A DNA stretch of 64,000 nt from Undibacterium sp. Lineage in GTDB: Bacteria > Pseudomonadota > Gammaproteobacteria > Burkholderiales > Burkholderiaceae_D. The notes beneath the pieces are model-generated. The model searched no databases. It was not told the DNA's origin and saw only the letters and a program-made list of their open reading frames with translations. The stretch covers positions 1-64,000 of the forward strand of contig NZ_JAUSFI010000066.1 in NCBI RefSeq assembly GCF_030651495.1, given 5' to 3'. Numbering within the stretch: position 1 is the stretch's first letter; every line of letters starts with the position of its first letter. The position numbers and the translations under genes were made by a program. This document shows, one piece after another, positions 4,689 through 51,523 of this stretch.

Positions 4689-4768
4689 ATGCCCGGCACG
4701 CATATCCCATGCGGGTTTCAAGCCGTTCTGGCCTGCAGGGCGCATGGGATATGCGCCCTGGGCCTGCC
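4689..4768 (+). repeat. Dispersed palindromic repeat, copy 1
   Basis: Intergenic imperfect palindrome. The left arm carries CGCATATCCCATGCGG and the right arm CGCATGGGATATGCG. The arms extend outward into GCCC..GGGC and inward to an apex reading AGCC-GTTCT-GGCCTGCA. An AT-rich stretch flanks it on the left. It is one of seven copies in the window and lies between the arsR gene and a lipoprotein gene. The strand given follows the orientation of the apex. Confidence 0.85.
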
Positions 4769-4929
4769 ATTATTTCGCTTTAGAAAACAGCTGTTTTTTT
4801 AAACGGACACTCACATCGACTGGCGATGTAGCACAATCTACAACACTATTAGGCGAAAAGACAATATTGTCATCTCAATAATGGAAGGATGCCCTACAAT
4901 TCTCTTTTGCATATTTTAAGAAAAAGAAA

Positions 4930-5916
4930 ATGGGCTCCCTCCTGAAGACCTTCAGCACCTGCACCTTACTACTGACAATGACCGCCTGCGCTTCGTTTAC
5001 CCATGAAAGCGACCAGCAGATACACATCGCCACGTATGATCAGAACGGTGTCAAGGTAAAAGGCGCGAGCTGCAAATTAAGTAATGATTTCAGGCAAAGC
5101 ACGATAGATACGCTGGAACCGGTCAAGGTACATCGTTCTTACTCGGATTTGATGATTGAATGCAAAAAACCTGGCTATGCCGACGCCAATGCCCGCGTCG
5201 TTTCCAGTGTAAACGCGGGGATGTACGGCAATATTCTTACTGCCGGCATTGGCGCACTTTTTGATCACTCCACCGGCGCTGCCTATACTTACCCGCAGCA
5301 GATGAATCTGGTCTTTGGCAAGACGCTGAACTTTGATCGCCGCAGCGACAAGGTGGGGCAATTATCGGTCGCGACTGACATCCCGAAGAAAAAAGATATT
5401 CCAGCCGTAGCCAGTACCCCGCCTGCCAGCAATGCGGCAGCGACCGTACCGGCACAGGCCAAGCCCGAGACCACCAATGTGGCGCAGAACACCAGCGAAG
5501 CATTAAAAGTGTCAAGAACTGCCGCACTCACTGCCCTGGCAAAATGGCGCGCAGCATGGGTGAGCATGAATCCACCCGCTTATTTTGAGCTGTACGCTAA
5601 AAATTACACCTCAAATGCCCCTTGGAAAGCAGCACGTCAGGCGCGTCTTCTGGGTGCCGAAAAAATTTATTTGGACCTCACGGATATCAAAGTCAACCTG
5701 CAAGATGCCAAACACTTGACGATCAGTTTTCACCAAGAATACCGTTCCCCCTCGTATAAAGATGCCTTGGAAAAAATCTTATATTGGGAAGAAGTCGATG
5801 GTAGCTGGTTAATCGTCAATGAAGCGATTAATCCTGGCCAAAACAATCTACAAAACACGGTACAAAACGGCTCACAAAGCGGTTCACAACGCGGCTCACA
5901 AAACGCCAAGCTATAG
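4930..5916 (+). CDS. Putative lipoprotein with C-terminal NTF2-like domain
   Basis: A 328-residue protein with a signal peptide and the lipobox MTAC (Cys at about 21). Residues 25-140 form a beta-rich domain with a hydrophobic glycine-rich insert (YGNILTAGIGALFDH). A Pro/Ala/Thr linker of about 45 residues follows. The region of about residues 195-310 ends in a WEEVDGSWLIVNE pattern typical of NTF2/SnoaL-like folds used as non-catalytic periplasmic domains. The tail has short repeats of the form QxGSQ (about residues 310-326). I do not recognise a specific family. Location in the outer membrane or periplasm is inferred from the lipobox. The ribosome binding site is weak (purine run AAGAAAAAGAAA). 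The gene stands alone between repeat copy 1 and the convergent bigR. Confidence 0.75.
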   Translation: MGSLLKTFSTCTLLLTMTACASFTHESDQQIHIATYDQNGVKVKGASCKLSNDFRQSTIDTLEPVKVHRSYSDLMIECKKPGYADANARVVSSVNAGMYGNILTAGIGALFDHSTGAAYTYPQQMNLVFGKTLNFDRRSDKVGQLSVATDIPKKKDIPAVASTPPASNAAATVPAQAKPETTNVAQNTSEALKVSRTAALTALAKWRAAWVSMNPPAYFELYAKNYTSNAPWKAARQARLLGAEKIYLDLTDIKVNLQDAKHLTISFHQEYRSPSYKDALEKILYWEEVDGSWLIVNEAINPGQNNLQNTVQNGSQSGSQRGSQNAKL

Positions 5917-5994
5917 CAACACCACGCTTGCGCAGTATCATTCTGCACAAGCGTGGCTGAAATAGACGAGCCCTCGCCGTTGTTGCACGCCGCC

Positions 5995-6342
5995 TTAGAT
6001 TTGCGGGCAATACTCAATATGCATTGCCTTTAATAAACCCAGCACCCGCGCATCTGCTACCGAATAGTAAATGCGTTTGCCATCACGGCGGGTATGCACC
6101 AGGCCCTCGGTACGCAAGACACCTAATTGCTGCGATAACGTAGGCTGGCGAATATCGAGAAGCTGCTCCAGCTCGCTGACCGACTTTTCGCCCAGGCTCA
6201 GCTGACACAGCAACAGCAACCGATCTTCGTTGGCCATCGCGCGCAAAGAACCGACGGCGGTTTTTGCTGTCGCGCGCATTTGCGCCAGATCAAAAGGAGT
6301 AGGATGTTCCATGCTTAAATTATCGAATTCACTTGCGTTCAT
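5995..6342 (-). CDS. bigR: BigR/SqrR-type ArsR-family persulfide-sensing repressor
   Basis: A winged-helix repressor of 115 residues from the ATG at 6342. The frame extends further upstream, but that would run into the divergent gene. Cys46 (LLLLCQ) and Cys112 (IEYCPQ) are 66 residues apart, the same spacing as the redox pair C41/C107 known in SqrR and C42/C108 in BigR. In those proteins the pair forms a polysulfide bridge that releases DNA. The helix-turn-helix is QPTLSQQLGVLRTEGLV and the wing contains GKRIYYSV. It is divergent from a Blh-type persulfide dioxygenase, the standard BigR target. Sensing of reactive sulfur is inferred from the cysteine spacing and this context. Confidence 0.88.
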   Translation of the reverse strand: MNASEFDNLSMEHPTPFDLAQMRATAKTAVGSLRAMANEDRLLLLCQLSLGEKSVSELEQLLDIRQPTLSQQLGVLRTEGLVHTRRDGKRIYYSVADARVLGLLKAMHIEYCPQI

Positions 6343-6366
6343 TTTATTCTTTGATATTATGTAAGT

Positions 6367-6376
6367 CAATATATTG
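6367..6376. promoter_or_regulatory. Palindrome in the bigR-blh divergent promoter region
   Basis: CAATATATTG is a perfect 10-base palindrome in the 51-bp AT-rich gap between the divergent starts. It is a candidate operator or overlapping -10 region. The match to known BigR/SqrR boxes was not established. Confidence 0.3.
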
Positions 6377-6393
6377 TTATCGGCGAGTAAGGC

Positions 6394-7254
6394 ATGCATC
6401 CACAGATACAAAGTTTCTTCGATCTCATTACCGGCACCGCCAGTCACGTGATCTATGATGAGATCGGCGGGCATGCTGCGGTAGTCGATCCGGTGCTTGA
6501 TTACGATGCTAAATCGGGGCGCACCAGCACTGTCGCGGCCGACAAAATTTTACTTTTTTTACGCGAGCAGCGTCTCACATTGGCATGGATATTAGAAACC
6601 CACGCGCATGCCGATCACCTCTCGTCGGCAAAATATCTGCAACAGGCGTTAGGCGGAAAAATCGCCATCGGTGCGCATATCAACCAGGTGCAAACGACCT
6701 TCAAAAAACTGTTTAATCTAGAACCAGAGTTCGCAGTCGATGGCTCGCAATTTGATGTCCTGCTGCACGAAGATGAGATTTTCCAGATCGGCGCATTGCA
6801 GGCCAAAGCCTTGTTTGTCCCTGGCCATACACCTGCCGACATGGCGTATCAAGTCGGCGATGCGGTATTTATCGGCGACACCTTATTCATGCCAGATACC
6901 GGTACGGCACGCTGCGATTTCCCTGGTGGCGATGCGCATTTGCTGTATCAGTCGATACAAAAAATATTGGCATTGCCGGCTGAGACCAGACTATTTTTAT
7001 GCCACGACTATCCGCCCGCAGAGCGCGCGCCACAATGGCAGACGACAGTAGCGGCGCAACGTGCCGGCAATATCCATGTGCATGACGGGATCAGCGCGGC
7101 GGCGTTTGTCCACATGCGCAACGCCCGCGATGCGACGCTGGAAAAGCCGTTGCTTATTTTTCCATCGGTACAGGTGAATATCCGCGCCGGAGATTTTCCG
7201 CCAGCGGAAAATAATGGCATCAGTTATTTAAAAATCCCCCTGAACAGTCTGTGA
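6394..7254 (+). CDS. blh: Blh-type MBL-fold persulfide dioxygenase
   Basis: A 286-residue metallo-beta-lactamase-fold enzyme of the ETHE1/Blh group, which oxidises glutathione persulfide to sulfite. Metal ligands are visible: HAHADH (His70, His72, Asp74, His75), VPGHTP, the GDTLFMPDTGTARCDFPGGD segment (ligand Asp) and LCHDYPP. The DTG...RCDFPGG motif separates this group from glyoxalase II. Length agrees with the family. Its start lies 51 bp from divergent bigR, and the next genes on the strand encode a DUF2892 membrane protein and a phosphofructokinase. Derepression by sulfide or persulfide through BigR is inferred from homologous loci. Confidence 0.88.
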   Translation: MHPQIQSFFDLITGTASHVIYDEIGGHAAVVDPVLDYDAKSGRTSTVAADKILLFLREQRLTLAWILETHAHADHLSSAKYLQQALGGKIAIGAHINQVQTTFKKLFNLEPEFAVDGSQFDVLLHEDEIFQIGALQAKALFVPGHTPADMAYQVGDAVFIGDTLFMPDTGTARCDFPGGDAHLLYQSIQKILALPAETRLFLCHDYPPAERAPQWQTTVAAQRAGNIHVHDGISAAAFVHMRNARDATLEKPLLIFPSVQVNIRAGDFPPAENNGISYLKIPLNSL

Positions 7255-7275
7255 GGCTGGTGGATGAATTTTTTG

Positions 7276-7362
7276 CTGGAGCATTAATTAAATATTAACT
7301 AAGCATTAATTAAGCATGGAACCCAATTTAAGTTTCAACTGTAGTTTCAATTGTAGTTTTAC
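7276..7362. repeat. Short direct repeats upstream of the DUF2892 gene
   Basis: Within the 132-bp gap after blh, GCATTAATTAA occurs twice about 23 bp apart. Then GTTTCAACTGTA and GTTTCAATTGTA follow about 15 bp apart. The region is AT-rich and could hold a promoter or operator. No function is established. Confidence 0.35.
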
Positions 7363-7386
7363 GTATTTACCACCAAGGAGAGCAGC

Positions 7387-7578
7387 ATGAACGTCAACGT
7401 CGGCAGTGCAGATCGTATCATTCGTATTTTAGTAGGACTGGCCCTTATCGGTGCGACTTTGGGCGGCTATATCGGCGCATGGGGCTGGATCGGTATTGTA
7501 TTGATCTTGACTGGCACTTTCCGCTTTTGTCCGGCGTATCGCCTGTTAGGCATGTCAAGCTGCAGCATGAAAAAATAA
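7387..7578 (+). CDS. DUF2892 (YgaP-like) small membrane protein
   Basis: A 63-residue protein with two hydrophobic helices (IIRILVGLALIGATLGGYIG and WGWIGIVLILTGTFRF) and the family's cysteine-bearing end CPAYRLLGMSSC. It matches the DUF2892 membrane domain found alone or fused to the rhodanese YgaP, often beside persulfide dioxygenase and BigR genes. A strong ribosome binding site (AAGGAG) stands before the ATG. It probably lies in the inner membrane in the sulfur-response operon. A role in sulfur transfer or transport is inferred only from context. Confidence 0.85.
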   Translation: MNVNVGSADRIIRILVGLALIGATLGGYIGAWGWIGIVLILTGTFRFCPAYRLLGMSSCSMKK

Positions 7579-7589
7579 AAAGAATCACG

Positions 7590-8729
7590 ATGACAACGAT
7601 GTCCCAGCCAACGCAGCCGATCAGGCGTATCGCCATCAGCACCGGCGGCGGCGATGCTCCCGGTTTGAATGCGGTGATACGCGCGGTAGTGCTTGCTGCC
7701 GCGCAACGTGGCTGGGAATCCTACGGCATCCGTGAAGGCTTTAACGGCATCTTGTGCCCGGATCGTTATCCTGTCGATGGTGTGTTCCGGCTCAGTCTCA
7801 ATAGCGTGCGTGGCATCGGCCATCTCGGCGGCACGATTCTCGGCACCACCAACCATGGCAACCCATTACGCTTCGCCGTAAAAATGGCAGACGGCAGTAC
7901 GCAAGAAGTCGATCGTAGTGGTGAAATCATCGACTATCTCAGAAAAATGGACATCGATGCACTGATATGCGTGGGCGGCGACGGCACCCTGACCATCGCT
8001 CACGCGCTGCATCAGCAAGGGCTGGCGAAGGGTTTACGCGTCATTGGCGTACCAAAGACCATCGACAACGATCTGGATAAAACATTTACTACCTTTGGCT
8101 TCGACACCGCCGTGTCTTTTGCCACGGAGTGCGTGGACCGATTGCATAGCACCGCCGAAAGCCATCAGCGCGTGATGGTGGTCGAAGTGATGGGTCGCTA
8201 TGCCGGCTGGATAGCACTGCATGCGGGTATTGCCAGTAATTCGCATGCGATTTTGATTCCTGAAATTGCTTATGATCTGCAACAGGTGGCGGCAAAAATT
8301 CACGAACGCGATGTCGCCGGCCAGCACTACTCTATCGTGATGGTGGCAGAAGGTGCGGTAGCGAAAAGCGGTGCACATGCGCGACAAGAGAAGGCTGGAG
8401 TCGGTTATGTCGAAAGGCTAGGCGGTATCGGTGAACATGTAGCCCAGGAATTACAAGAAATTACCGGCAAAGACGCGCGCGCGGTAGTGCTTGGCCATTT
8501 ACTTCGCGGTGGCAGCCCGACCGCTTTTGATCGCCTCTCTGCGCTGCGCTTCGGTGCCGCAGCAGTCCGCGCACTGGATCAAGGATACTCCGGCATCATG
8601 GTCGCGCTGGCATTCCCGAACGTGAATTATGTGGCGCTGGAAGAAGTGGCGGGACGCATGAAAGGCGTAGCTTTAGATGGTGACACCTTGCAAACCGGAC
8701 GCGACCTCGGCATCTGTTTTGGCGATTAA
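7590..8729 (+). CDS. pfkA: 6-phosphofructokinase, ATP-type signature
   Basis: About 379 residues from the ATG at 7590. The frame runs further upstream into the preceding gene but has no credible start there. It phosphorylates fructose 6-phosphate. The N-terminal phosphate loop reads STGGGDAPGLNAV. GGDGT near residue 129 carries Gly where PPi enzymes have Asp, which marks ATP use. PKTIDND near residue 154 supplies the catalytic Asp but has Lys in the second specificity position, a mix seen in the group III PFK clade. MGRYAGW and GHLLRGGSPTAFDR follow. The start lies 11 bp after the DUF2892 stop, so it may be read with the persulfide-response genes. Donor specificity is predicted from residues only. 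Confidence 0.9.
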   Translation: MTTMSQPTQPIRRIAISTGGGDAPGLNAVIRAVVLAAAQRGWESYGIREGFNGILCPDRYPVDGVFRLSLNSVRGIGHLGGTILGTTNHGNPLRFAVKMADGSTQEVDRSGEIIDYLRKMDIDALICVGGDGTLTIAHALHQQGLAKGLRVIGVPKTIDNDLDKTFTTFGFDTAVSFATECVDRLHSTAESHQRVMVVEVMGRYAGWIALHAGIASNSHAILIPEIAYDLQQVAAKIHERDVAGQHYSIVMVAEGAVAKSGAHARQEKAGVGYVERLGGIGEHVAQELQEITGKDARAVVLGHLLRGGSPTAFDRLSALRFGAAAVRALDQGYSGIMVALAFPNVNYVALEEVAGRMKGVALDGDTLQTGRDLGICFGD

Positions 8730-8772
8730 ATAATACCAATCGCGCAGAGGCAGTCTACGAGAGTTTCGGCCC

Positions 8773-12438: not shown

Positions 12439-12485
12439 TCTTACTCAAATAATAATATAAGCCCAAAATTACAAGGATACTTCGA

Positions 12486-17091: not shown

Positions 17092-17640
17092 ATCCACACA
17101 CCTCAGCGTCACGTTTGGCCGGGCGCCAGGGCATGTCACGCCGCGCCACCCTGATCGACGCCGGCCACAGGAGAGCCAACTCATCGCCAAGACGATTAAT
17201 CATCTGTTGCCGGTGGTGGCATTTACTTATAGGGATAATGCGGTGCTGACGTATATCAAAAAATCCCCGTCCACGCCAAATGACATCTGTAGCAGGAAAT
17301 TTCATCATAGCGGCACGCCCGGCGCGCATAGCCCATGCGGCTTGCAGGCCAGACCGGCTGGAAACCCGCATGGGATATGCGCGCTGGGCCTGGTCACTTT
17401 TGAATTCTTTTAACCCTACTTCGATGCGGCACAAAACATATAGTACTGAGCTGAAGTCTGATAATTCGCCCGTCTATTCAACTCAACTTATATGGAAACA
17501 CGTTGGGCTCTTTATCGGCCTGCCTGTCAAATTTTTTTTAGCATGACATAATATTAATTTTATGTCGAAATTTTTTACACTTTAGCGCATTATTCAATTT
17601 TACTTTCCGTAAGTCATTGTTTTAAATAAATATTTCTTAA
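17092..17640. other. Intergenic region holding repeat copy 2
   Basis: About 550 bp between the divergent NERD and PEP-CTERM genes. The first ~200 bp are GC-rich and have open frames on both strands (for example 17434 to 17078 on minus) with no recognisable family. Repeat copy 2 follows. The last ~200 bp are AT-rich and lead to the sigma-54 promoter. Confidence 0.5.
17312..17393 (-). repeat. Dispersed palindromic repeat, copy 2
   Basis: The left arm is GCGCGCATAGCCCATGCGG and the right arm CCGCATGGGATATGCGC, with outer arms GCCCGGC and GCTGGGC. The apex is inverted relative to copy 1; read on the minus strand it is TCCAGCC-GGTC-TGGCCTGCA. It is followed by AT-rich sequence on the right. Confidence 0.85.
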
Positions 17641-20795: not shown

Positions 20796-20866
20796 AGGCC
20801 CAGGACGCATAGCCCATGCGGCTTAGCGAGCAGGCAGGCTGGAAACCCGCAGGGGATATGCGTGAG
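20796..20866 (-). repeat. Dispersed palindromic repeat, copy 3 (degenerate outer arm)
   Basis: The left arm is ACGCATAGCCCATGCGGC and the right arm CCGCAGGGGATATGCGT. Read on the minus strand, the apex begins TCCAGCC, as in copies 2 and 5. It shares the CATAGCCC variant with copy 2. The outermost arm on the right no longer pairs. It lies in the 398-bp gap between the MATE gene and the yitT-like gene; nothing else was recognised in that gap. Confidence 0.8.
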
Positions 20867-21053: not shown

Positions 21054-21668
21054 ATGACCACTGCCACGCCCGCTAGCGCTCCCCACAGCTTGTTTGAAGA
21101 CATACTGGCAATTTTGACCGGCACCCTGTTTGTCTCGCTGGGAGTGGCGATGTTTAATCAGGTTGGCTTGCTGACGGGCGGTACGGCGGGTCTGGCTTTT
21201 CTGGTTCACTATCGCACCGGCTTGTCTTTTGGCCTGGTGTTCTTTTTGATCAATTTGCCGTTTTACTGGCTGGCATGGCGTCGTATGGGATGGCGGTTTA
21301 CGCTGAAAACCTTTTGCGCGGTAGCGCTGGTGTCGGTGATGTCTGGCTTGCATCCGAAACTCATACAGTTAAGCGCGCTGACGCCATTTTATGTTGCCAT
21401 CATCGGCGGCTTGCTGATGGGCGTGGGGTTTATCGTCCTGTTTCGCCATCAGGCCAGCCTGGGTGGCATCAATATTCTGGCGCTGTATCTGCAAGACAAG
21501 CACGGCATCCGCGCCGGCAAGCTGCAAATGGGCATGGATGTGTTGATCGTGATGATGTCGCTGCTGGTGGTCAGCCCTACCGCATTACTGGCATCGATAC
21601 TCGGTGCGGTGATGCTGAATCTGGCGATCGCGCTGAATCATCGGCCTGGCCGCTATATGGCGATGTAA
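21054..21668 (+). CDS. YitT family (DUF161) membrane protein
   Basis: A 204-residue protein with six hydrophobic segments. The glycine-rich stretch QVGLLTGGTAGLAFLVHY and the later RHQASLGGINILALYLQDK are the internally repeated YitT/DUF161 signatures. It has one membrane unit and lacks the cytoplasmic DUF2179 domain of Bacillus YitT. The function of the family is unsettled. It stands alone upstream of adhC, separated by about 114 bp. Confidence 0.85.
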   Translation: MTTATPASAPHSLFEDILAILTGTLFVSLGVAMFNQVGLLTGGTAGLAFLVHYRTGLSFGLVFFLINLPFYWLAWRRMGWRFTLKTFCAVALVSVMSGLHPKLIQLSALTPFYVAIIGGLLMGVGFIVLFRHQASLGGINILALYLQDKHGIRAGKLQMGMDVLIVMMSLLVVSPTALLASILGAVMLNLAIALNHRPGRYMAM

Positions 21669-21782
21669 AAGAAAATTCTGAGCGCGAATGTGGCCGGGGG
21701 TTTTCGCTTTTTATTTCCTCCGGCAATAAGTGCCCATATCAGAGATAATGCCTTTCTATTATTGACCAATGAAAAGGCTCCC

Positions 21783-22889
21783 ATGAAAACCAAAGCCGCA
21801 GTCGCCTGGAAAGCCGGCGCCCCACTGACGATAGAAGAAGTTGATCTGCAAGGCCCGCAGGCCGGTGAAGTGCTGATTGAGATCAAAGCTACTGGCATTT
21901 GCCATACCGATTATTACACTTTGTCGGGCGCTGATCCTGAAGGCTTGTTCCCGGCAATTTTAGGCCATGAAGGCGCAGGCATCGTGGTCGATACCGGCCC
22001 CGGCGTGACCAGCTTGCGTCAGGGCGATCATGTGATTCCGCTGTACACCCCAGAATGCCGCCAGTGCAAATACTGCCTGTCGCGCAAGACCAATCTGTGC
22101 CAGGCGATACGTTCTACCCAAGGGCGCGGCCTGATGCCCGATGCGACGTCACGCTTCTCCCTGGATGGCAAACCCTTATTCCATTACATGGGTACCTCGA
22201 CGTTTTCCAACTACATTGTGGTACCGGAAATCGCGGTCGCTAAAGTGCGTGATGATGCGCCTTTTGACAAAATTTGCTATATCGGCTGTGGCGTGACTAC
22301 CGGCGTCGGCGCCGTCGTCTTCAGCGCCAAGGTCGAAGCCGGCGCCAATGTGGTGGTGTTTGGTCTCGGTGGCATCGGCCTGAACGTGATCCAGGCCGCC
22401 AAAATGGTGGGGGCCGACAAGATTATCGGCGTCGATATCAACCCTCGGCGCGAAGCCATGGCACGCAAATTCGGCATGACGCATTTCATCAATCCGACGC
22501 AGGTAGAAAACGTGGTGGATCACATCGTCCAGCTGACCGATGGCGGCGCCGACTATTCGTTTGAATGCATAGGCAATACCAAGGTAATGCGCCAGGCACT
22601 GGAATGCTGCCATAAAGGCTGGGGCCAATCTTTCATCATCGGCGTGGCCGAAGCCGGTGCAGAAATCAGCACCCGCCCGTTCCAGCTGGTCACCGGACGC
22701 GAATGGAAAGGCTCTGCTTTCGGCGGCGCACGCGGGCGCACCGATGTACCCAAAATCGTCGACTGGTATATGGAAGGCAAACTCAATATCGACGATCTGA
22801 TTACGCATCGCTTGCCGCTGGAACGCATCAATGAAGGCTTTGATCTAATGAAGAGCGGCGAATCGATACGCTCGGTGGTGTTGTTCTGA
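21783..22889 (+). CDS. adhC: S-(hydroxymethyl)glutathione dehydrogenase (class III ADH)
   Basis: Oxidises S-hydroxymethylglutathione to S-formylglutathione with NAD+ in cytosolic formaldehyde detoxification. 368 residues, the usual length. Catalytic zinc ligands are in GICHTD and LGHEGAG plus the later GCGVTTG. The structural zinc cluster is [15 protein letters not shown]. The Rossmann loop is [10 protein letters not shown], with the acidic VGVDIN-type residue for NAD. AAAGG precedes the ATG. The stop overlaps the start of fghA (TGATG), so the two are translationally coupled. Confidence 0.96.
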
Positions 22890-25171: not shown

Positions 25172-25204
25172 ATGCCTGGCTGCCGTGTCAAAAAATTTAA
25201 AACA

Positions 25205-25289
25205 CGGCAGGCCCGTCACGCATATCCCATGCGGCCTGCAGAGGTGAGTGGCTGAAGAACCGCATGGAATATGCGCACCCAGCCTGCCC
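25205..25289 (-). repeat. Dispersed palindromic repeat, copy 4
   Basis: The left arm is CACGCATATCCCATGCGG and the right arm CCGCATGGAATATGCGC, with outer arms GGCAGGC and GCCTGCC. The apex is on the minus strand (TTCAGCC). AT-rich runs flank both sides. It sits between the terminator and the 3' end of kup. Confidence 0.85.
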
Positions 25290-25307
25290 ATTTTCAAAAA
25301 ATAGATG

Positions 25308-38239: not shown

Positions 38240-38286
38240 CCACATACAAGCTTGACCTCGATTTAACGATAAGAAAACTGAAATAA

Positions 38287-38372
38287 TGGCAGGCTCAAGG
38301 CGCATATTCCATGCGCCTTTCCAGCCACCCCGGCCTGCAACCCGCATGGGGATTGCGCGGTGGGCCTGCTCA
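38287..38372 (+). repeat. Dispersed palindromic repeat, copy 5
   Basis: The left arm is GGCGCATATTCCATGCGCC and the right arm CCCGCATGGGGATTGCGC, with outer arms GGCAGGC and GGGCCTGC. The apex is TCCAGCC-ACCCC-GGCCTGCA. AT-rich TTTTTGAATTTTAAAA follows on the right. It lies between nirE and the P-type ATPase start. Confidence 0.85.
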
Positions 38373-38402
38373 TTTTTGAATTTTAAAAATTAACATGACG
38401 CC

Positions 38403-41723: not shown

Positions 41724-42099
41724 CCTATTCTCCTATCTACAGTCGGTTATTTCAATTCAGGCACACGGCCAGCGAAATACGGATGCAATTCAATATTTTT
41801 TTCTTCTGAGATCAAGTATTATCTAATACTGTCATTTTTACAAGCAATGATCATAAACACCATTTTATCGATTCACGCTAAACAAGCAGCGCGGTTCTGC
41901 GACAACAAGATTAGGTTGCGCTAATCCGAGAGACGAGCAAATGTGCGCTAACGTACGGACGGGTTCTATTTACAGGTAGAAAGTAACAAAACGACATCAA
42001 AAGAATGCAAGATTGCCGCGCTAGCGACCCAAGACAATCGAGCTTACTCAAGGTACTCGTGTTCACATGATGCTTCATCTGACCACCCAAGGAAAATCT
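41724..42099. other. Intergenic region with a short inverted repeat
   Basis: About 375 bp between divergent genes. AGTATTA and TAATACT form a 16-base inverted repeat at 41815-41830, about 92 bp upstream of the ClpP-like start, a possible operator. Nothing else was recognised. Confidence 0.4.
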
Positions 42100-43068: not shown

Positions 43069-43086
43069 TCATGTTTTAACCGTGAT

Positions 43087-43976
43087 TTAACAATGCACTT
43101 TTAAAGACCTTAAATGCCAGTATAGGTCAGTATAGATACCGCTACCTTTAAGGTAGTTAAATTTGGCGAATGAAGTAGAGGCAGGCGGCAAAAAGTCCTG
43201 CCCTATTTTTTTATCCGGCTTCTTGATAGTTTCAGTCGTCAGCTTTGCTGGTCTTCCTGGTCTGGTTGGTGTTCGCCGCGCACCACTGGCCGCACTCATG
43301 GCTTCTTTAAATTGCTCACTTCCTAGCGCTTGCGCTTGCTGCAAGACGAGCCGTAAATCATCAATTGCCATCTGCTCGAATACAGTCCTAAATAAATCCC
43401 GGTGAACGGCTTGCCGTACTTCTGGCTCTGTTCCTAATGCCAGATACTGCGGGTGCGGATGCCATCTCGTATCGCTCTGTCCTAAAGCGTGATGCCGGTA
43501 ACTGGACCATCTGTATTGCGCCGGATCATCCACCATATTGGCTCTGACAGGAGTGAGTTTGATGTAACGCTGGCACAGTAAAAATAGCCTTCTGTCTGCA
43601 CCAGGCTTGATTTAAAACGTCCGTCCCATCAGGTGCCGCTGCGTTTATAAAATCGATTTACATAGTGCGCGTAACGCCGCCCCACCGATTGCATGAGTTT
43701 GGCGGAGCCATCCGGTGTTTGAGGTGTTACCAGTCGATGAACATGATTTATCATCAAGACATAAGCATGTACCTGACAACACCAATCGGCAGCCGCCTTA
43801 AATAAGCAATGTGGACAACACTGACAATCTTCACCGGCAAAAAAGCAGGGCTCTCGATTGACGCCTCTTTGCACAAGATGCTGTGGAATACCCGCTAAGC
43901 AAATGCGTGGACGATGCCGGGATAGCTTAGGCTTGCGTTGGAAAATAATGTGATGCTGACCCGCTTTGGTTGCCAA
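43087..43976 (-). pseudogene. REP-associated tyrosine transposase (RAYT, Y1_Tnp), broken
   Basis: Conceptual reading from 43976 gives a Y1 transposase: PQHLVQRGVNREPCFFAGED, then HAYVLMINHVHRLVTPQTPDG (HUH motif HVH), then SVGRRYAHYVNRFYKRSGT with the catalytic Tyr. A TGA at 43631-43629 replaces the Leu codon of RSGTLW. The same frame goes on as WDGRFKSSLVQTEGYF, then shifts at an A-run near 43580-43584. Reading resumes in another frame as RYIKLTPVRANMVDDPAQYRWSSYRHHALG to the end. One nonsense change plus one frameshift make it inactive. RAYTs move REP palindromes; no copy of the window's repeat touches this gene. Confidence 0.85.
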
Positions 43977-44007
43977 CTACAGCATTCATTTTAGAATTTC
44001 CTAAAAA

Positions 44008-44514: not shown

Positions 44515-44669
44515 TTTTGCCCCAATTTTTATTAAAAAATTTACTGTGGTGTTGTATTAGCAATGTTAGCAATCGCTGCGAACACCATGAGCTACCGGCA
44601 ATCAAGAGCGATGCACGCAGCGTATTAAACTCATAGCTCTCTCCAGCTTAGTGTTTTTTGTAGTCAGGC

Positions 44670-45158: not shown

Positions 45159-45303
45159 ATTGATGGTCCTAGTGTGGTTTTGATTAAAAAAGTTCTCATT
45201 ATGCTGATCTGCTTAAATTGATGTAACTTAAAACTATCTGCGCTTGAACCTCTTACTTGTGCCGACTACTGATGGTCGCGATTCCGTTTATGTCCTCAAT
45301 AGT

Positions 45304-45388
45304 GACCTAGCCCGGCGCGCATATTCCATGCGATTCTCCAGCCTATCTGGCCTGCAAGGCGCATGGGATATGCGCGCTGGGCTAGGTG
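45304..45388 (+). repeat. Dispersed palindromic repeat, copy 6 (best paired)
   Basis: Arms of about 27 bases, from CCTAGCCC outward to CCATGCG inward, pair with only two exceptions. One of these would be a G-U pair if transcribed on the plus strand. The apex is TCCAGCC-TATC-TGGCCTGCA. A T-run (TTTTTTT) starts three bases past the right arm, so it could also act as a terminator. The rest of the 413-bp gap around it shows no gene. Confidence 0.88.
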
Positions 45389-45571
45389 TTTTTTTATTTT
45401 CATCCAGCACCGAACGTTGACCCTGATTGATTTCTGCCACCACTTGCGATAGAAAAAATCATCGTTTTATTGCGCCCCATTGCGGCTAGCCACAATAGCG
45501 ACACTCAGGCCTATGACATAATCCACGCTAGCACTTTCGCCCCACATCCTACGTCCTCAACATACACGCAC

Positions 45572-46099: not shown

Positions 46100-46111
46100 A
46101 ATAGACGCGCC

Positions 46112-46633
46112 TTACACTGCCAGCGCCTGCTCTAACAAGGCATGCAATTCCTTGAAGGAAGGCTGACCGACATAGCGTTTGATAATTTTGCCTTGTTTAT
46201 CGATGACATAGGTCGTTGGCGTGAGTTTAACGTCGCCAAACGACTGCGCCAATTGTCCCTGTACATCGAGCGCGACATGAAACGGTAACTGGCGGGTTTC
46301 GGCGTAGTTCAACACATAATTCGGCGGGTCGTAGCTCATCGCTACGGCGACAAATTCCAGGCCTTTCGGATGAAATTTATTATAGGTTTCTATCATCTGC
46401 GGCATCTCGGCCACGCAGGTGGAGCATGAAGTTGCCCAGAAATTGACCATCACGACCTTGCCACGCAGGCTTTGGCTGCTGATTTTTTCGCCCTTCAGAT
46501 TGACGTAAGTGACATCGGGCGCGGCTTGTTTGCCCGCAAGAGATTGATAAAACAAGACGGCCAGCACAATCAGAAAACTGCCCGCCAGAAGCGAAAACAG
46601 TAAAAACTTGCGCGGTGCGGTGGGTGCGAGCAT
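46112..46633 (-). CDS. TlpA/ResA-like membrane-anchored thioredoxin
   Basis: 173 residues. An N-terminal uncleaved-type helix (about 9-32) anchors a periplasmic thioredoxin fold with the active site CSTC (NFWATSCSTCVAEMPQM) and the cis-Pro region LTPTTYVID. Such proteins reduce disulfides in apocytochromes or other periplasmic targets. A link to the c-type cytochromes of the nir locus is possible but unproven; no ccm genes are near. Confidence 0.9.
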   Translation of the reverse strand: MLAPTAPRKFLLFSLLAGSFLIVLAVLFYQSLAGKQAAPDVTYVNLKGEKISSQSLRGKVVMVNFWATSCSTCVAEMPQMIETYNKFHPKGLEFVAVAMSYDPPNYVLNYAETRQLPFHVALDVQGQLAQSFGDVKLTPTTYVIDKQGKIIKRYVGQPSFKELHALLEQALAV

Positions 46634-46757
46634 GGGAGATCCGATACAGATGAAAAATAACTTGATCTCGCATTATACGGTGCCTGCTGGGTTATAGTCA
46701 GGACGGGTTCTATGACAAACCCGTTATTTAATCCCTAGCTTAATCGACGGCAAACTG

Positions 46758-47954
46758 ATGAATTATAAAATGAGCGATGGCATAAAAAAAATCCCGCAGG
46801 GAATCTGGATGCTGGGCTTTGTCAGCATGCTCATGGATATCTCGTCCGAGATGGTCCATAGCCTGTTACCGCTGTTCATGGTGGGCACGCTGGGTGCCAG
46901 CGCCTTTACCGTGGGACTGATCGAGGGATTGGCAGAATCGCTGGCACTGATCGTCAAGGTGTTTTCCGGCACGCTCAGCGATTATCCTGGCAGGCGTAAA
47001 GGGCTGGCGCTGTTTGGTTATGGGCTGAGCGCGCTGACCAAACCACTCTTTGCCATCGCGGCCAGCGCCGACATGGTGCTCACGGCTAGACTACTCGACC
47101 GCATCGGCAAGGGCATACGTGGCGCGCCGCGCGACGCCCTGGTGGCCGATATTGCCCCGGCCGAATTACGCGGTGCCGCGTTTGGCCTGCGCCAGTCACT
47201 CGATACCGTCGGCGCGTTTACCGGCCCCTTGCTGGCGGTGGGCCTGATGCTGCTCTGGGCCAACGATTTCCGCAGTATTTTTTGGTTATCGGTCATCCCC
47301 GGCCTGCTGGCCCTGGCTTTATTGCTATTTGGCGTACACGAACCGGCCAACGCGCATGCCGGCAAGGCGCGCAACCCGATTAGCAGGGCGAATTTGCAGA
47401 GACTGAATCGCCGTTACTGGTGGGTGGTGGCGATAGGCGGCATCTTCACCTTGGCGCGCTTTAGCGAGGCTTTTTTAGTCTTGCAGGCACAGCAAGTTGG
47501 CATTCCGCTGGCACTGGTGCCGCTGGTAATGGTGGCGATGAATCTGGTCTACGCGGCGGCGGCCTATCCGTTTGGCAAACTGTCGGATCGCATCAGCCAC
47601 AGCAGTTTGCTGATGCTGGGTTTGCTGTGTCTAATCGCCGCCGACCTGATTCTCGCCAATAGCAGCGGCTGGGCCGGCGTGCTGGCTGGCGTGAGCTTAT
47701 GGGGGCTGCACATGGGCATGACACAGGGTTTGCTGGCCAGCATGGTCGCGGCCAGCGCGCCCTTTGATTTACGCGGCACCGCGTATGGCCTGTTCAACCT
47801 GATCAGCGGCATCGCCATGCTGATCGCCAGCGTGGTGGCTGGCCTGTTATGGGATCACTACGGCGCGGCTTTCACGTTTTATGCCGGTGCCGGGTTTTGC
47901 GTCGTGACCATGCTGGCTTTGCTCACTTTTACGGCCAAGCCGGCATTACCATAA
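46758..47954 (+). CDS. MFS transporter
   Basis: 398 residues with about twelve hydrophobic helices. The loop 2-3 motif is present as GTLSDYPGRRKGLALFGY, and RIGKGIRGAPRDALVADIAP is a conserved segment of a DHA-like bacterial subgroup. It is an inner-membrane major facilitator of unknown substrate. No good ribosome binding site is seen; an ATG four codons in is an alternative start. Its stop overlaps the 3' end of the convergent outer-membrane gene by 9 bases. Confidence 0.88.
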   Translation: MNYKMSDGIKKIPQGIWMLGFVSMLMDISSEMVHSLLPLFMVGTLGASAFTVGLIEGLAESLALIVKVFSGTLSDYPGRRKGLALFGYGLSALTKPLFAIAASADMVLTARLLDRIGKGIRGAPRDALVADIAPAELRGAAFGLRQSLDTVGAFTGPLLAVGLMLLWANDFRSIFWLSVIPGLLALALLLFGVHEPANAHAGKARNPISRANLQRLNRRYWWVVAIGGIFTLARFSEAFLVLQAQQVGIPLALVPLVMVAMNLVYAAAAYPFGKLSDRISHSSLLMLGLLCLIAADLILANSSGWAGVLAGVSLWGLHMGMTQGLLASMVAASAPFDLRGTAYGLFNLISGIAMLIASVVAGLLWDHYGAAFTFYAGAGFCVVTMLALLTFTAKPALP

Positions 47955-48722
47955 GCGCGCCAGCGGCAGCACCAGCCCGGCGAACAGGGCGCAATCCGGT
48001 GATGCCGTCGTCAAGCCCTTGGCGACACCAAAATCCATCGTCAGGCGCTTGCTGGGGCTGTAACTCAAGGCTAACAGCGCCTGCCCTTGCGCCTTGGTGC
48101 CGCTGCGGCGTGACCCGGCCCATTCGGCAGTGGCGCCCCAGTGCTCATTGATGGGTAGTGAGAACGAGGATGACAAGCCACTCTGCATGTGCGAACTATC
48201 CTGTTCGGCCACGCCTAGCCGGGTCAGATTCAGGTTCAGGTCCATATGCAGCGCGCCGATGTCTTTGCTGAAAATGCCATTCATTTCATAATCGGCACGG
48301 CCGGAGCCTATCGCCTTGGCGGCAGTCGGCAATTTGCTCGACAATTCCAAGCCGAAGGCTGTGTCTTCACTGACGATGAAAGCGCGCTTGAGTACCAAGC
48401 TGGTATCGCCAAAACCGCGATCAAGCTGGCCGGCACCGTCGTTTGCCAGCACCAGCAATTCGCCGCCGACCAGCAGGCCCCACTCTTGGGAAAACGCCAG
48501 CTTCAGTTGATACGGCATGCTATGCCGGCGCGCCTGATCGCTGTGCGTGCTCAAGCCGCCCAATTCGAGTTCCAGTTGCCCTGCCAGCGGCAATTGCGCC
48601 GGGCTCGACACCGATGGCCGGTAAGGCGTAATCGCGCCATCGCTGTCATCCGGCCCGGCATGGGCCGACGCTGTCAGCATCAGGCTCATCGCGATAGCAG
48701 AAATAGAGAATACAGAGCGCAT
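47946..48722 (-). CDS. Putative outer-membrane beta-barrel protein
   Basis: 258 residues with a signal peptide (about 1-22, ending ASAHA). Alternating amphipathic strands follow (QLELELGGLST, MPYQLKLAFSQEWGLLVGGELL), and the C-terminus ends in a terminal aromatic (LARLW), as expected for a barrel. It resembles the PF13557 'MetA-pathway phenol degradation' barrel group, whose role is unclear. It is the downstream neighbour of the Lrp gene on the same strand. It overlaps the MFS gene tail to tail. Confidence 0.72.
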   Translation of the reverse strand: MRSVFSISAIAMSLMLTASAHAGPDDSDGAITPYRPSVSSPAQLPLAGQLELELGGLSTHSDQARRHSMPYQLKLAFSQEWGLLVGGELLVLANDGAGQLDRGFGDTSLVLKRAFIVSEDTAFGLELSSKLPTAAKAIGSGRADYEMNGIFSKDIGALHMDLNLNLTRLGVAEQDSSHMQSGLSSSFSLPINEHWGATAEWAGSRRSGTKAQGQALLALSYSPSKRLTMDFGVAKGLTTASPDCALFAGLVLPLARLW

Positions 48723-48757
48723 GATTTTCCTTGAATTTTCGTTGAATTTTCGTTGAA

Positions 48758-49213
48758 TTATGAGGCGCTGACGGTCGGTACCGAGATCGGCTTACCGGCC
48801 ACGTGCGTCGTCAGTACGATCGCGGTCGAGGTCGAGCCAAAGACATTGAGTTCATCGATGACGCGCTGGAGATGCTCGACATCGGTGGCCAGCACGCGCA
48901 TCACCGCGCCGTCTTCGCCGGTAACGGTATAGCAATCGATAATTTCGGGGCAGCGGGCGACATACTCAGCGTAAGGCCGGCCCTGCTGGGTGGACAGGCG
49001 TATCATCGCCGTAATCTGGTAGCCGAGCGCTTTGGGGCTGATATCGGCGCGGTAGCCGCGGATAACGCCGGCTGCTTCCAGCCGTTTAATCCGCTCCGAG
49101 ACGGCGGGCTGGCTCAGGTGCACCTGCCGGCCGATTTCGGCATGGGACATACGGGCATCCTGTTGCAATAATTGCAGGATTTTCTGGTCGAAATTATCCA
49201 CTTTTTGATTCAT
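48758..49213 (-). CDS. Lrp/AsnC family transcriptional regulator
   Basis: 151 residues. The N-terminal helix-turn-helix is RMSHAEIGRQVHLSQPAVSERIKRLEAAGVI. The C-terminal RAM/ferredoxin-like effector domain contains VTGEDGAVMRVLATDVEHLQRVID. The ATG at 49213 is preferred (AAGGG about 10 bases upstream); a TTG at 49219 is possible. It is divergent from lysA across 121 bp, so control of lysA in response to an amino acid is the natural guess. Confidence 0.92.
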   Translation of the reverse strand: MNQKVDNFDQKILQLLQQDARMSHAEIGRQVHLSQPAVSERIKRLEAAGVIRGYRADISPKALGYQITAMIRLSTQQGRPYAEYVARCPEIIDCYTVTGEDGAVMRVLATDVEHLQRVIDELNVFGSTSTAIVLTTHVAGKPISVPTVSAS

Positions 49214-49334
49214 AAGCAAGCACCCTTAATTTCAATTCAAATCATGGAAAAAGCATTTAATTGCTTATGAGTTCCCATTCATTTCCTGTCTTTACCTTGT
49301 TATATTATAGGTCAACTTAAACGAGATTCCTATC

Positions 49335-50576
49335 ATGCCAAATGCTATCACGCCGACCCAGATCGCCCACATTGCCGCGCAATTTAACACGCCTTGCTGG
49401 GTGTATGACGCGCAAGTCATCCGCCAGCAAATAGCCCGTTTGCGCCAGTTTGACGTGATCCGTTTTGCGCAAAAGGCATCGAGCAATATTCATTTGCTCA
49501 AACTCATGCGCGAACAGGGCGTGATGGTGGATTCGGTCTCGCTCGGCGAGGTCGAGCGTGCGCTGGCCGCGGGCTATGTCCCCGATGCCAATGCCAAGCA
49601 CGCGCCCATCGTGTTTACCGCCGATTTGCTGGATAAAAACGCCTTGCAGCGCGTTATTGAACTCAATATTCCGGTCAATTGTGGCTCGCCACAAATGCTG
49701 GAACAACTCGGCCAGGCCCATCCCGGCCACCCGGTCTGGCTGCGCATTAATCCCGGTTTTGGCCATGGCCACAGCCGCAAGACCAATACCGGCGGCGAGC
49801 AAAGCAAGCACGGTATCTGGTTTGAGCATTTACAGCACTCCTTGGCCATCATCGAACAGTATGGCTTGACACTCATCGGCTTACACATGCATATCGGTTC
49901 AGGCGTCGATTACGACCATTTGCAAAGCGTCTGCGACGCCATGATTACGCAAGTCAAAAACTGCGGCCGCGACCTTCAGGCGATCTCGATCGGCGGCGGC
50001 CTGTCGATCCCGTATTACGGCGACGAAGCCGTGGTCGATACCGACCACTATTTTCAAATCTGGGACAAGGCGCGCAAACAGATCGAAGCCCACCTTGGTC
50101 ATGCCATCAGTATGGAAATCGAGCCGGGACGTTTTCTGGTGGCGCAATCGGGTTTGCTGATCTCGGAATTGCGCGCGCAAAAACAAGTCGGCAATAATTT
50201 CTTTGCGCTGGTCGATGCCGGCTTCAATGACCTGGCCCGCCCGGCCATGTATGGCAGCTATCACCGCATCAGCACCCATGCGCCGGATGGCACGCCGCGC
50301 AGCGGTGCCACGCGCCCTACCGTGGTCGCCGGCCCCTTATGCGAATCGGGCGATGTGTTTACCCAGGAAGAGGGTGGCGTCGTCACCACGCAAGATTTAC
50401 CGGCCTGCGAGATCGGCGATTTGTTTGTATTTCACGATACCGGCGCTTACGGTGCCAGCATGTCGTCGAATTACAACTCGCGCCCATTGATACCGGAAAT
50501 CCTGGTTGACGGTGAGCAAATCAGGCAAATTCGCCGACGCCAGACGGTGCAGGAACTGATCGCGCTGGAACTGTAA
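49335..50576 (+). CDS. lysA: Diaminopimelate decarboxylase, E. coli LysA type
   Basis: 413 residues, a fold-type III PLP enzyme turning meso-diaminopimelate into L-lysine. The PLP lysine is Lys47 in FAQKASSNIHLLKLMREQG, close to the E. coli LysA motif rather than the common YAVKAN. HMHIGSGVD, SIGGGLSIPY and the active-site Cys region GPLCESGD follow. The E. coli-like version is usually controlled by LysR; here a divergent Lrp-type gene takes that place. A strong hairpin follows the stop. Confidence 0.93.
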   Translation: MPNAITPTQIAHIAAQFNTPCWVYDAQVIRQQIARLRQFDVIRFAQKASSNIHLLKLMREQGVMVDSVSLGEVERALAAGYVPDANAKHAPIVFTADLLDKNALQRVIELNIPVNCGSPQMLEQLGQAHPGHPVWLRINPGFGHGHSRKTNTGGEQSKHGIWFEHLQHSLAIIEQYGLTLIGLHMHIGSGVDYDHLQSVCDAMITQVKNCGRDLQAISIGGGLSIPYYGDEAVVDTDHYFQIWDKARKQIEAHLGHAISMEIEPGRFLVAQSGLLISELRAQKQVGNNFFALVDAGFNDLARPAMYGSYHRISTHAPDGTPRSGATRPTVVAGPLCESGDVFTQEEGGVVTTQDLPACEIGDLFVFHDTGAYGASMSSNYNSRPLIPEILVDGEQIRQIRRRQTVQELIALEL

Positions 50577-50602
50577 ATCTAGCGTCAAATTCCGCTTCAA
50601 CG

Positions 50603-50638
50603 CCCAGAGAAAACGCGCCAGCCGCCGTTTTCTCTGGG
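50603..50638 (+). terminator. Strong hairpin after lysA
   Basis: CCCAGAGAAAACG and its exact complement CGTTTTCTCTGGG flank a 10-base loop, 26 bases past the lysA stop. No T-run follows, so termination is likely only in a broad sense; RNA stabilisation is the alternative. Confidence 0.6.
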
Positions 50639-50848
50639 AACCTGATTCAGCACCATTCCCCTTTTCAAGGGATTGACGCGGCACCAGAGATCCCCTAAAA
50701 TCTGCCGCACAGGTGTGAAGGGACGCCTGCCCGCACAAGAGGCTCTCACCCTAGTCTTCTCATTTATCATCATGCAGATTTGATGTGATAAGAACTTAAT
50801 TCGTTTGGCATCAGCGGGATTGCCACCATAACGAACAGGAGCCTTATC

Positions 50849-51367
50849 ATGCTATCCCCCGTCACCGAACTCAAGACCCGCGCCCGTTTATTGTTAAACG
50901 CCATGCACGCCAACACGCCTGCAAGCATCGCGCGCAGCACCCGCATCAGCAAACAACAAGCCTGGCCTATCCCGCAACTATGGACCTTACGCCACGCGTT
51001 AAACATCGTCGCCAGCGAAGCCGGATTTAGCCATTGGGAGCAGGCGCGTCATGTCTTGAGTGGCGCAGCACAGGCCAGCGAAGACATGGGCACGTTCTGG
51101 TACGACAAGCGGGCGCATGGCTTTACCAATCACTGGTTTGCCCATTACCATGAAGCCAAAGCGCAATTGCAACTGCATCCGGACAGTTATCTGCTGCCGT
51201 ACAAAAATCAGTTTTTTGTCGCCGAACTGGCGTGCATTACGCCACTAGGTTTAGCGGAGAATGTATCCCTTTGGCTAGCCCTATCGCATGATCTGGTGGC
51301 AGGTTACGGCAGTGCAGCCTGGACAGGTCTATGCGCACTGCGACTCAAAGCAACTCGCCTTGAATAG
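50849..51367 (+). CDS. Conserved hypothetical protein
   Basis: 172 residues with an excellent ribosome binding site (AGGAGC). The N-terminal LKTRARLLLNAMHA and HALNIVASEAGFSHWEQARHVL resemble the short helical 'glyoxalase-like superfamily' leader domain found in small Burkholderiales proteins. The rest (DMGTFWYDKRAHGFTNHWFAHYHEAKAQLQ) is rich in Trp, His and Tyr and unrecognised. No signal peptide or membrane segment. Function is unknown. Confidence 0.72.
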   Translation: MLSPVTELKTRARLLLNAMHANTPASIARSTRISKQQAWPIPQLWTLRHALNIVASEAGFSHWEQARHVLSGAAQASEDMGTFWYDKRAHGFTNHWFAHYHEAKAQLQLHPDSYLLPYKNQFFVAELACITPLGLAENVSLWLALSHDLVAGYGSAAWTGLCALRLKATRLE

Positions 51368-51452
51368 CCAAAAACACCCGCCGGCATTGAAGTCAAACTC
51401 GAACTTAAAGAAGAGTAATTGACGCAGTGTGTGATGAACACGTTGAGCGAAA

Positions 51453-51523
51453 ATGGACACGCATATTCCATGTGCCTTTCGAGCCCATAATGGCCTGGGA
51501 GGCGCATGGATACTGCGCGTCCG
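51453..51523 (+). repeat. Dispersed palindromic repeat, copy 7 (short)
   Basis: The left arm is GGACACGCATATTCCATG and the right arm GCATGGATACTGCGCGTCC, with outer GGAC/GTCC still pairing. The apex is AGCCC-ATAAT-GGCCTG. It is the most diverged copy, between the hypothetical gene and the convergent PhyH-like gene. Confidence 0.75.

What the first reader, a model, noticed from the sequence alone, without database searches (positions are those of the whole stretch)
4689..51523. Seven dispersed intergenic palindromes with a shared stem and apex
Near 4.7, 17.3, 20.8, 25.2, 38.3, 45.3 and 51.5 kb the same 70-85 bp structure recurs. Arms are built on GCGCATATCCCATGCGG and its complement, outer GCCC/GGGC extensions, and an apex TCCAGCC-N4/5-GGCCTGCA that gives each copy a direction. 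Copies 1, 5, 6 and 7 point one way and 2, 3 and 4 the other. All are intergenic and most have AT-rich flanks. This is too long and too structured for a chance or simple terminator family. It behaves like a REP/BIME- or MITE-type element, and about one per 9 kb implies hundreds per genome. I know no named family with this core.
Basis: seen in the sequence. Interest (0 to 1): 0.74.

Follow-up and report, generated by a model that had tools for sequence, protein, structure and literature searches.

The report
Lineage-amplified palindromic repeat of Undibacterium
Short near-palindromic DNA repeats of about 110 bases lie between genes in one group of bacteria, in dozens to hundreds of copies in some species and almost none in their sisters; they look like a stripped-down mobile element of a known general kind, but of a family for which I found no name.

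Summary
The seven palindromes are real and one family. Unit: about 110 bp; AAATTYAAAA box, GC-rich stem, arm CGCA-N7-TGCG, conserved asymmetric apex, mirror arm and stem, TTTTTGAATTT box. Arms covary; conservation ends sharply. The genus is inferred to be Undibacterium. A strict inner-hairpin pattern counts 240, 168 (own), 153 and 67 in four of 43 genus genomes, 0-8 in the other 39. One of 199 other order-level genomes matched. Arms in G025 differ systematically from G000, so copies spread or were homogenised after the lineages split. Of 102 own copies, 39 lie between convergent and 13 between divergent genes, without orientation bias. Not a GTAG REP: the tag is absent and the genus has a separate GTAG REP family, differently distributed. 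Relatives sit beside five small RAYT genes, and a RAYT-leader hairpin is linked to them through an intermediate. Best reading: a non-autonomous REPIN/MITE-like hairpin element, probably mobilised by a RAYT-type HUH transposase. Dispersal is shown, the enzyme inferred. No empty site or target duplication was found.

The parts
4673..4782 (+). element copy 1 (core 4698-4756), between an ArsR-family gene (4272-4640) and the gene at 4930
   Evidence: R1 88.8 bits; ArsR HTH; same slot occupied in G015 and G025
17298..17407 (-). element copy 2 (core 17324-17382)
   Evidence: R1 94.4 bits
20779..20888 (-). element copy 3 (core 20805-20863), one apex half of another type
   Evidence: R1 60.7 bits; same slot occupied in G015
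25192..25301 (-). element copy 4 (core 25218-25276), between convergent genes (ACP synthase III-like; kup)
   Evidence: R1 83 bits; context; neighbours
38275..38384 (+). element copy 5 (core 38300-38358), after a tetrapyrrole methylase gene, before a P-type ATPase gene
   Evidence: R1 82.9 bits; neighbours; slot occupied in G015
45292..45401 (+). element copy 6 (core 45317-45375), the most regular copy
   Evidence: R1 100.7 bits, best of the genome; DNA fold z -7.79
51434..51541 (+). element copy 7 (core 51459-51517), degenerate outer stem, between convergent genes
   Evidence: R1 72.9 bits; slot occupied in G025

Best explanation
The palindromes are copies of a non-autonomous, hairpin-forming mobile repeat of Undibacterium, REPIN/MITE-like, about 110 bp: two inverted half-units, usually of different apex type, AT-rich ends, no gene inside. 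Shown: one family, high copy number, structural covariation, sharp boundaries, intergenic 3'-end bias, lineage-specific amplification, and arm sequences that differ between lineages. Inferred: spread is by transposition in trans, most likely as a single-stranded hairpin handled by a RAYT-type (Y1/HUH) transposase, because relatives of the element sit beside small RAYT genes. Inferred too: copies persist mainly where they do least harm (downstream of genes, away from promoters), where the long hairpin may act as a terminator or 3'-end stabiliser. Most copies look old; some slots are occupied in several species while sequence and orientation turn over.
For: Dispersed family. Strict copy counts 240/168/153/67 against 0-8 in the other 39 of 43 genus genomes. 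Of 199 other genomes of the order sample, 1 matched at E<=1e-4. Boundaries: information is near background outside about -11 and +12, a weak T at -14 apart. Structure: 156 double-change cells against 76.7 +/- 7.0 in shuffles, 0 of 500 reach it. Lineage difference: arm positions 6-7 = TA in 133 of 166 in-register arms of G000 and 1 of 50 of G025, Fisher p 3e-25. Location: 39 convergent, 27 tandem, 13 divergent of 79 classified (convergent against divergent p 4e-4); in tandem gaps 19 nearer the upstream stop and 8 nearer the start, p 0.052; orientation with/against tandem genes 13/14. The doublet is the unit: no solitary arm in the window at 2 or 3 mismatches. RAYT link: the sequence-only model R3 hits five small-RAYT loci out of 58 RAYT-type loci searched: L053 5e-19, L062 1e-15, L261 5e-11, L057 1.5e-8, L054 4e-7 and 1e-6; the hairpin about 250 bp upstream of the G000 C159 RAYT (in L054/L243) aligns over 62 bases without gaps to the G010 RAYT leader hairpin, score 39, best of 500 shuffles 22.
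Against: No empty/filled site pair clean enough to show an insertion and no target-site duplication. No near-identical pair: best 78 of 87 identical among 65 equal-length copies, and that pair lies within one locus, so no sign of recent movement. RAYT presence does not track copy number: G017 (5 strict copies; 89% complete) has no small RAYT found, while G034, G064 and G019 have 3, 3 and 4 but only 1, 1 and 2 strict matches. RAYT proximity is weak as a statistic: in the four rich genomes 5 of 7 held small-RAYT loci (orthologues once; two more loci not fetched) and 0 of 5 other RAYT-like loci have a relative, while by the density of copies I estimate that about 40% of such stretches would have one anyway. 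The G010, G014, G035 and G029 leader hairpins were not found by the element profile, and three typical elements compared directly with them were reached by 1 to 298 of 500 shuffles. Arms outside R1 elements do occur in relatives: 7 of 59 arm hits in the G015, G013 and G025 stretches, some of them parts of unscored elements. One covariation measure, the number of pairs with a double change, was 19 against 17.0 and reached by 44 of 500 shuffles.
Confidence: 0.55

Rival explanations
1. A MITE in the strict sense: a deletion derivative of a DDE-transposase insertion sequence, with the AT boxes plus outer stem as terminal inverted repeats, moved by that IS.
For: Size, inverted ends, symmetrical AT boxes AAATTYAAAA/TTTTTGAATTT, sharp boundaries; no gene inside; lineage bursts.
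Against: No target-site duplication; among 361 ORFs near copies, 17 clusters recur at 3 or more sites and by eye none is a transposase; conservation is highest in the inner arms and apex, not at the ends.
Confidence: 0.2
2. A selected regulatory element: a bidirectional transcription terminator or mRNA 3'-end stabiliser module, spread by recombination and kept by function rather than by transposition.
For: Convergent bias and closeness to stop codons, median 19 bp to the nearest stop in 39 convergent gaps. At least 5 T in the 8 bases after the stem in 32 of 102 copies, at least 5 A before it in 23, against 4 and 2 at a control offset. Slots of c1, c3, c5 and c7 hold a copy in another species too.
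Against: Nearly absent from most congeners; only 50 of 102 copies have a T or A tract on either side; orientation opposite at the shared slots. The terminator-like scan gave no clear excess: 24, 30 and 27 against 23.5, 24.0 and 24.6, but it allows loops of 3-8 only and so cannot see the whole element.
Confidence: 0.15
3. A protein-binding site array (nucleoid protein, gyrase or IHF-like) multiplied for chromosome architecture.
For: Each arm is itself a short palindrome CGCA-N7-TGCG, strongly conserved.
Against: Patchy presence within one genus; no arm alone in the window; bases inside the arm change in step with the opposite arm, which a duplex binding site does not need.
Confidence: 0.05

Closest known systems
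REPIN (REP doublet forming a hairpin), Bertels and Rainey 2011, PMC3116915
   Same: Two inverted half-units with a spacer, long hairpin in one strand, compensatory changes, extragenic, high copy, no gene inside; partial kinship to hairpins beside RAYT genes.
   Different: No GTAG-type tag; inner arms and apex are the conserved parts, whereas in that paper the ends are conserved and the spacer less so; no solitary arm in the window, whereas 18% singlets are reported there; the genus has its own GTAG REPs.
GTAG- and CGTC-tagged REPs; TIRs of TIRYT genes (Di Nocera 2013, PMC3733652)
   Same: Palindromic, mostly downstream of genes, often in opposed pairs; that paper reports RAYT-like genes flanked by inverted repeats unrelated to GTAG REPs, some self-complementary and some forming dispersed families.
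   Different: Neither tag; not shown to flank the RAYT symmetrically; the paper's main text has no hit for Oxalobacter, Janthinobacterium, Herminiimonas or Burkholderia.
ERIC/IRU/RU-1 of enterobacteria (Delihas 2007, PMC2229807)
   Same: Small (100-200 bp) structured repeat, mostly intergenic, scattered, with a stable RNA fold.
   Different: Sequences not compared here. ERIC is listed there with TA at its ends and a target duplication; no duplication was found here, and TA ends were not tested.

Membership tests
REP (GTAG or CGTC superfamily) | unpaired GTAG or CGTC tag at one end of the palindrome | tested here: not met
   The 102-copy profile shows no such tag at the arms or element ends; the genus' GTAG REP is GTAGGGTGCGCCNTGCGCACC.
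REP/REPIN of a RAYT | same repeat flanks the RAYT gene | tested here: inconclusive
   58 RAYT-type loci: sequence-only hits at E<=1e-5 in 5, all small-RAYT loci; no symmetrical flanking seen; GTAGGGTGCGCC-type repeats lie inverted on both sides in 8 of 30 small-RAYT loci.
REPIN | inverted doublet forming one hairpin, with compensatory changes | tested here: met
   Folds (the best DNA fold of copy 5 is a different one), covariation, doublets only in the window.
MITE | terminal inverted repeats | tested here: met
   Symmetrical AT boxes and outer stem, although the AT boxes do not covary copy by copy.
MITE | target-site duplication | tested here: not met
   No direct-repeat excess beside 102 copies; best z 3.7 among about 2000 window pairs. 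Copies look old, so loss by decay is possible.
MITE | parent element with matching ends | not tested
   Only neighbours within 1.5 kb were examined; a full search needs annotated whole genomes.
intrinsic terminator family | stem followed by a T tract in most copies | tested here: not met
   32 of 102 copies have it on the 3' side, 50 of 102 on either side.
known RNA family | match to an Rfam model | tested here: not met
   0 matches in the window at gathering thresholds.

The most novel reading that the evidence does not exclude
A new class of untagged, asymmetric REPIN born from the leader hairpin of a RAYT gene: the hairpin upstream of a small RAYT was captured as a substrate, lost its dependence on the GTAG REPs, and was amplified independently in at least two Undibacterium lineages, with intermediate half-element/half-leader sequences still visible at the G000 C159 and G015 RAYT loci.
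Probability: 0.25. Interest if true: 0.7.

Novelty: new variant of a known kind. Interest (0 to 1): 0.45.

Why it matters
Where new REP/MITE-like families come from, and which enzyme moves those without a tag, is open as far as I know. Here one genus offers species with 67-240 strict copies beside sisters with none, a separate canonical GTAG REP family in the same genomes as an internal control, and candidate intermediates at RAYT loci, so RAYT specificity and the birth of a repeat family could be tested directly. It may also serve as a strain marker.

Tried and rejected
GTAG-REP membership: rejected (no tag; different genomic distribution). Gene-cassette idea, from pairs of copies ~0.6-0.9 kb apart in G015: rejected, the three stretches looked at hold ordinary or no clear genes and the pairs have no fixed orientation. 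Recurrent partner gene beside copies: none seen. Target duplications: none. Empty sites between G013, G015, G025 and the window: intergenic DNA too diverged, or whole stretches differ. R2 with filters off gives 20-24 bits to any strong hairpin, GTAG REPINs included, so hits at that level were not used as evidence. A weak R1 hit in L246 turned out by eye to be a GTAG REPIN. The best R1 hits in low-copy genomes G014, G035 and G033 (L037, L038, L039) gave no hit with the sequence-only model. Plasmids, phages, viral contigs: no match to one copy, one copy and one pattern. First genome contigs pattern scan: 0, though records near the own genome may be left out there. The window protein used to name the host is widely shared in Burkholderiales and did not name the genus by itself.

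Limits of counts: the genome search scored at most 150 or 74 candidates per genome, both strands of a copy counting separately, so those are lower bounds; whole counts come from patterns. At least some of the single strict matches in copy-poor genomes sit in GTAG REPINs (G030, G004, G023 by their letters). 102 copies of G000 were profiled, picked by R1 score; weak copies are under-represented, and apex-type counts lean towards the model's own A/B type. In one search arms out of register were dropped (38 of 204 in G000, 8 of 58 in G025, 21 of 48 in G013, 13 of 38 in G015). In one search, 14 copies at edges and 9 that overlap a called ORF (7 at its start side; L206 and L020 at its end) were left out of the gene-context tests. 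My gene caller is crude: it missed the ArsR gene, so copy 1, counted as divergent, is really tandem. G000 has 8.5% reported contamination. The 85-locus comparison set is mostly coding DNA round one gene and so a mild control.
Full report
Observation. The arm GCGCATATCCCATGCGG occurs 12 times in the window at up to three mismatches, against 0.50 expected and 0 of 100 shuffles reaching 12. These are both arms of six elements; the seventh is more diverged. The six best copies align over about 100 bp. As single-stranded DNA the seven fold better than the shuffle mean (z -2.2 to -7.8; for copy 3, 7 of 200 shuffles do as well; the best fold of copy 5 is not the long hairpin). Six folds as RNA (three copies, both strands) give z -4.0 to -9.4.

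Genome and relatives. The window is G000:C98:1-64000 of a 4.79-Mb, 179-contig assembly. A covariance model from the seven copies (R1) gave 150 scored matches there, which is the cap, all at E 0.00201 or better, both strands of a copy counting apart. Of 60 genomes including the own one, 18 matched at E<=0.01: 17 of the 36 of the genus, 7 of them with a single match at E 0.0018-0.0097, and one elsewhere in the order at 4.1e-4. Of 200 order-level genomes two matched at E<=1e-4, the own one and G209 (51 bits, 3.5e-10; its locus L303 gives 5.4e-6 by sequence alone); the five listed genomes of other genera of the same family had none. The genus is inferred to be Undibacterium: the genome in which an Undibacterium crateris locus lies (L104) shows the same rounded size and the same best R1 E-value, 0.00765, as same-genus genome G011.

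Copy number. The strict inner pattern CCATGCGS-N20-30-SCGCATGG, counted whole, gives 240 in G015, 168 in G000, 153 in G025, 67 in G013, 8 in G010, 6 in G020, 5 in G017, 2 in G019 and 0-1 in the other 35 of 43 genus genomes; the reversed control gives 0-1. A looser pattern gives 274 in G000 and 426 in G015, against 19-109 in the genomes outside the seven richest in R1 matches.

Anatomy. A profile of 102 G000 copies, left to right: RAAATTYAAAAR box; variable GC-rich outer stem (often GGCCCAGC, also GCCCGCTCA or CGCCAGC); arm CGCA-N4-CCA-TGCG; apex GGTTTCCAGCC-N4/5-GGCCTGCAAGC; mirror arm; mirror stem; TTTTTGAATTT box. Information is near background outside about -11 and +12, a weak T at -14 apart. 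The two stems complement each other copy by copy from model position 3 inward (tested to 13); the AT boxes are symmetrical in consensus but not copy by copy. In an alignment of 44 copies from four species, 156 cells change on both sides of a pair, against 76.7 +/- 7.0 in shuffles (0 of 500), and sliding the partners destroys the signal; the number of pairs with any double change, 19 against 17.0, is reached by 44 of 500 shuffles. Such covariation can come from selection on a hairpin or from arm-to-arm copying in DNA; these data do not separate the two. The apex halves are of two types and usually differ: with crude motif rules, 59 of the 70 G000 copies classifiable on both sides are mixed, 5 AA and 6 BB; 32 of 102 are unclassified on at least one side. 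The model was built from mostly A/B copies, so this count leans that way.

Turnover. In G000, 133 of 166 in-register arms carry TA at arm positions 6-7; in G025 1 of 50; in G013 25 of 27; in G015 21 of 25 (G000 against G025 Fisher p 3e-25). So the difference sets G025 apart from the other three. G025 copies were chosen by a model trained on G000, which works against this difference. Nearest neighbours within G000 are 71 of 87 identical at the median and 78 at most (65 equal-length copies), so most copies look old. Yet some intergenic slots hold a copy in several species: after the ArsR gene (c1: G015 and G025; in G013 a copy 350 bp beyond the gene corresponds to a second G015 copy), upstream of the genes at 21054-22889 (c3: G015), after the tetrapyrrole methylase gene (c5: G015; in G025 a copy lies about 190 bp before the ATPase gene only), and beside the PhyH-like gene (c7: G025). 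The best-scoring orientation is opposite between G000 and the relative at c1, c3, c5 (G015) and c7; the G025 copy near c5 has the same orientation. For c2, c4 and c6 I saw no counterpart (synteny broken or no R1 match), and some G013 and G015 copies lie in gaps that are empty in the other. Either slots are re-filled, or palindromes flip and are homogenised.

Context. With a home-made gene caller, of 102 copies 39 lie between convergent, 27 between tandem and 13 between divergent genes; 14 are at edges and 9 overlap a called ORF, 7 at its start side and 2 at its end. The caller missed the ArsR gene, so copy 1, counted as divergent, is really tandem. Convergent against divergent p 4e-4; median 19 bp to the nearest stop in convergent gaps; tandem copies nearer the upstream stop 19 to 8 (p 0.052); orientation relative to tandem genes 13 with, 14 against. 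A downstream, convergent and unidirectional preference is what PMC3733652 (abstract) reports for REPs, and is also what a promoter-avoiding element or a terminator would show.

Mobiliser. Of 361 ORFs within 1.5 kb of copies, 17 clusters recur at three or more sites; by eye none is a transposase. PF01797 proteins occur in 38 of 39 genus genomes searched. Small REP-type RAYTs are found in 28 of 43. In 8 of 30 small-RAYT loci a GTAG REP, GTAGGGTGCGCCNTGCGCACC or close to it, lies inverted on both sides; other loci have other GTAG-tagged repeats, such as GTAGGCTGGGA at one G015 RAYT. Summed over strands, at up to one mismatch, that GTAG REP counts 60-74 in G030, G023, G026 and G064, which have 0-1 strict matches of the element, and 17-35 in the four rich genomes. 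So the element is not that REP. However, a sequence-only model (R3) over 58 RAYT-type loci hits L053, L062, L261, L057 and L054 (two places) at E<=1e-5; L053 and L062 hold broken RAYTs. A comparison set of 85 loci (80 of them genome-contig loci, 2 of these Undibacterium) gave two hit loci, L303 and L172, both brought in by R1. A hairpin ACGCAATGTCTGTGCGGCTTGTGGCGTGTTTTGGTGCCACGAGGCGCGTCTTTGTTGCGG or a close variant starts about 137 bp upstream of the RAYT match in G010, G014 and G035, and lies beside the G029 one. The G000 C159 hairpin, itself an R3 hit, aligns to the G010 one without gaps (score 39; best of 500 shuffles 22); it scores 22, 28 and 19 with those of G014, G035 and G029 (0, 0 and 24 of 500 shuffles reach these). 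By eye its left half reads like the element and its right half like the leader hairpin. Direct comparisons of three typical elements with the four leader hairpins are weak: 1 to 298 of 500 shuffles reach the score. The kinship is therefore transitive and partial.

Literature. Library searches (open-access PubMed Central only) for Undibacterium with palindromic, MITE, or repeats and genome returned 4, 3 and 8 papers; judged from the listings only, none describes this family. I read the abstract, one section and a term search of PMC3733652, the abstract and two sections of PMC2229807, and the abstract and part of one section of PMC3116915.

Verdict. A real, lineage-amplified palindromic repeat family for which I found no name; a non-autonomous mobile element of REPIN/MITE kind is the best reading (0.55 including the RAYT route; near 0.85 for 'dispersed non-autonomous mobile repeat' alone). 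Movement itself has not been seen.

Noticed in passing
window 43087-43976 (-): Degraded Y1 (PF01797) transposase gene, apparently not of the small RAYT type, broken by a stop; the nearest element, copy 6, lies more than 1 kb away.
   Followed up: partly
L242, L248, L249, L261, L243: Canonical GTAG REPIN family (GTAGGGTGCGCCNTGCGCACC pairs) around small RAYT genes; up to 74 strand-summed matches per genome.
   Followed up: partly
L056 1789-1841 and 2441-2492: Another RAYT with its own flanking palindromes ATCCCAGCCTAC...GTAGGCTGGGAT.
   Followed up: no
G013:C1:2140001-2300000 against G015:C1:1417001-1577000: Two species about 81% identical in aligned DNA share tracts of 99-100% identity, pointing to recent recombination.
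   Followed up: no
L072 16200-17680 (G015): Repeated long stretches without clear genes, with three element copies among them, that give similar, probably spurious ORF translations.
   Followed up: no
L303 (G209, another family of the order): One element-like palindrome with sequence-only support (5.4e-6) in a 680-contig assembly; could be transfer or a mis-binned contig.
   Followed up: no
L172 (Undibacterium crateris): A short hairpin with a similar inner stem (ATGCGGCTTTTCAGGC...CTAAGCCGCAT); possible sister family.
   Followed up: no
G000:C98:64205-64291 and 68943-69029: Two more element copies just beyond the window's right end on the same contig.
   Followed up: no
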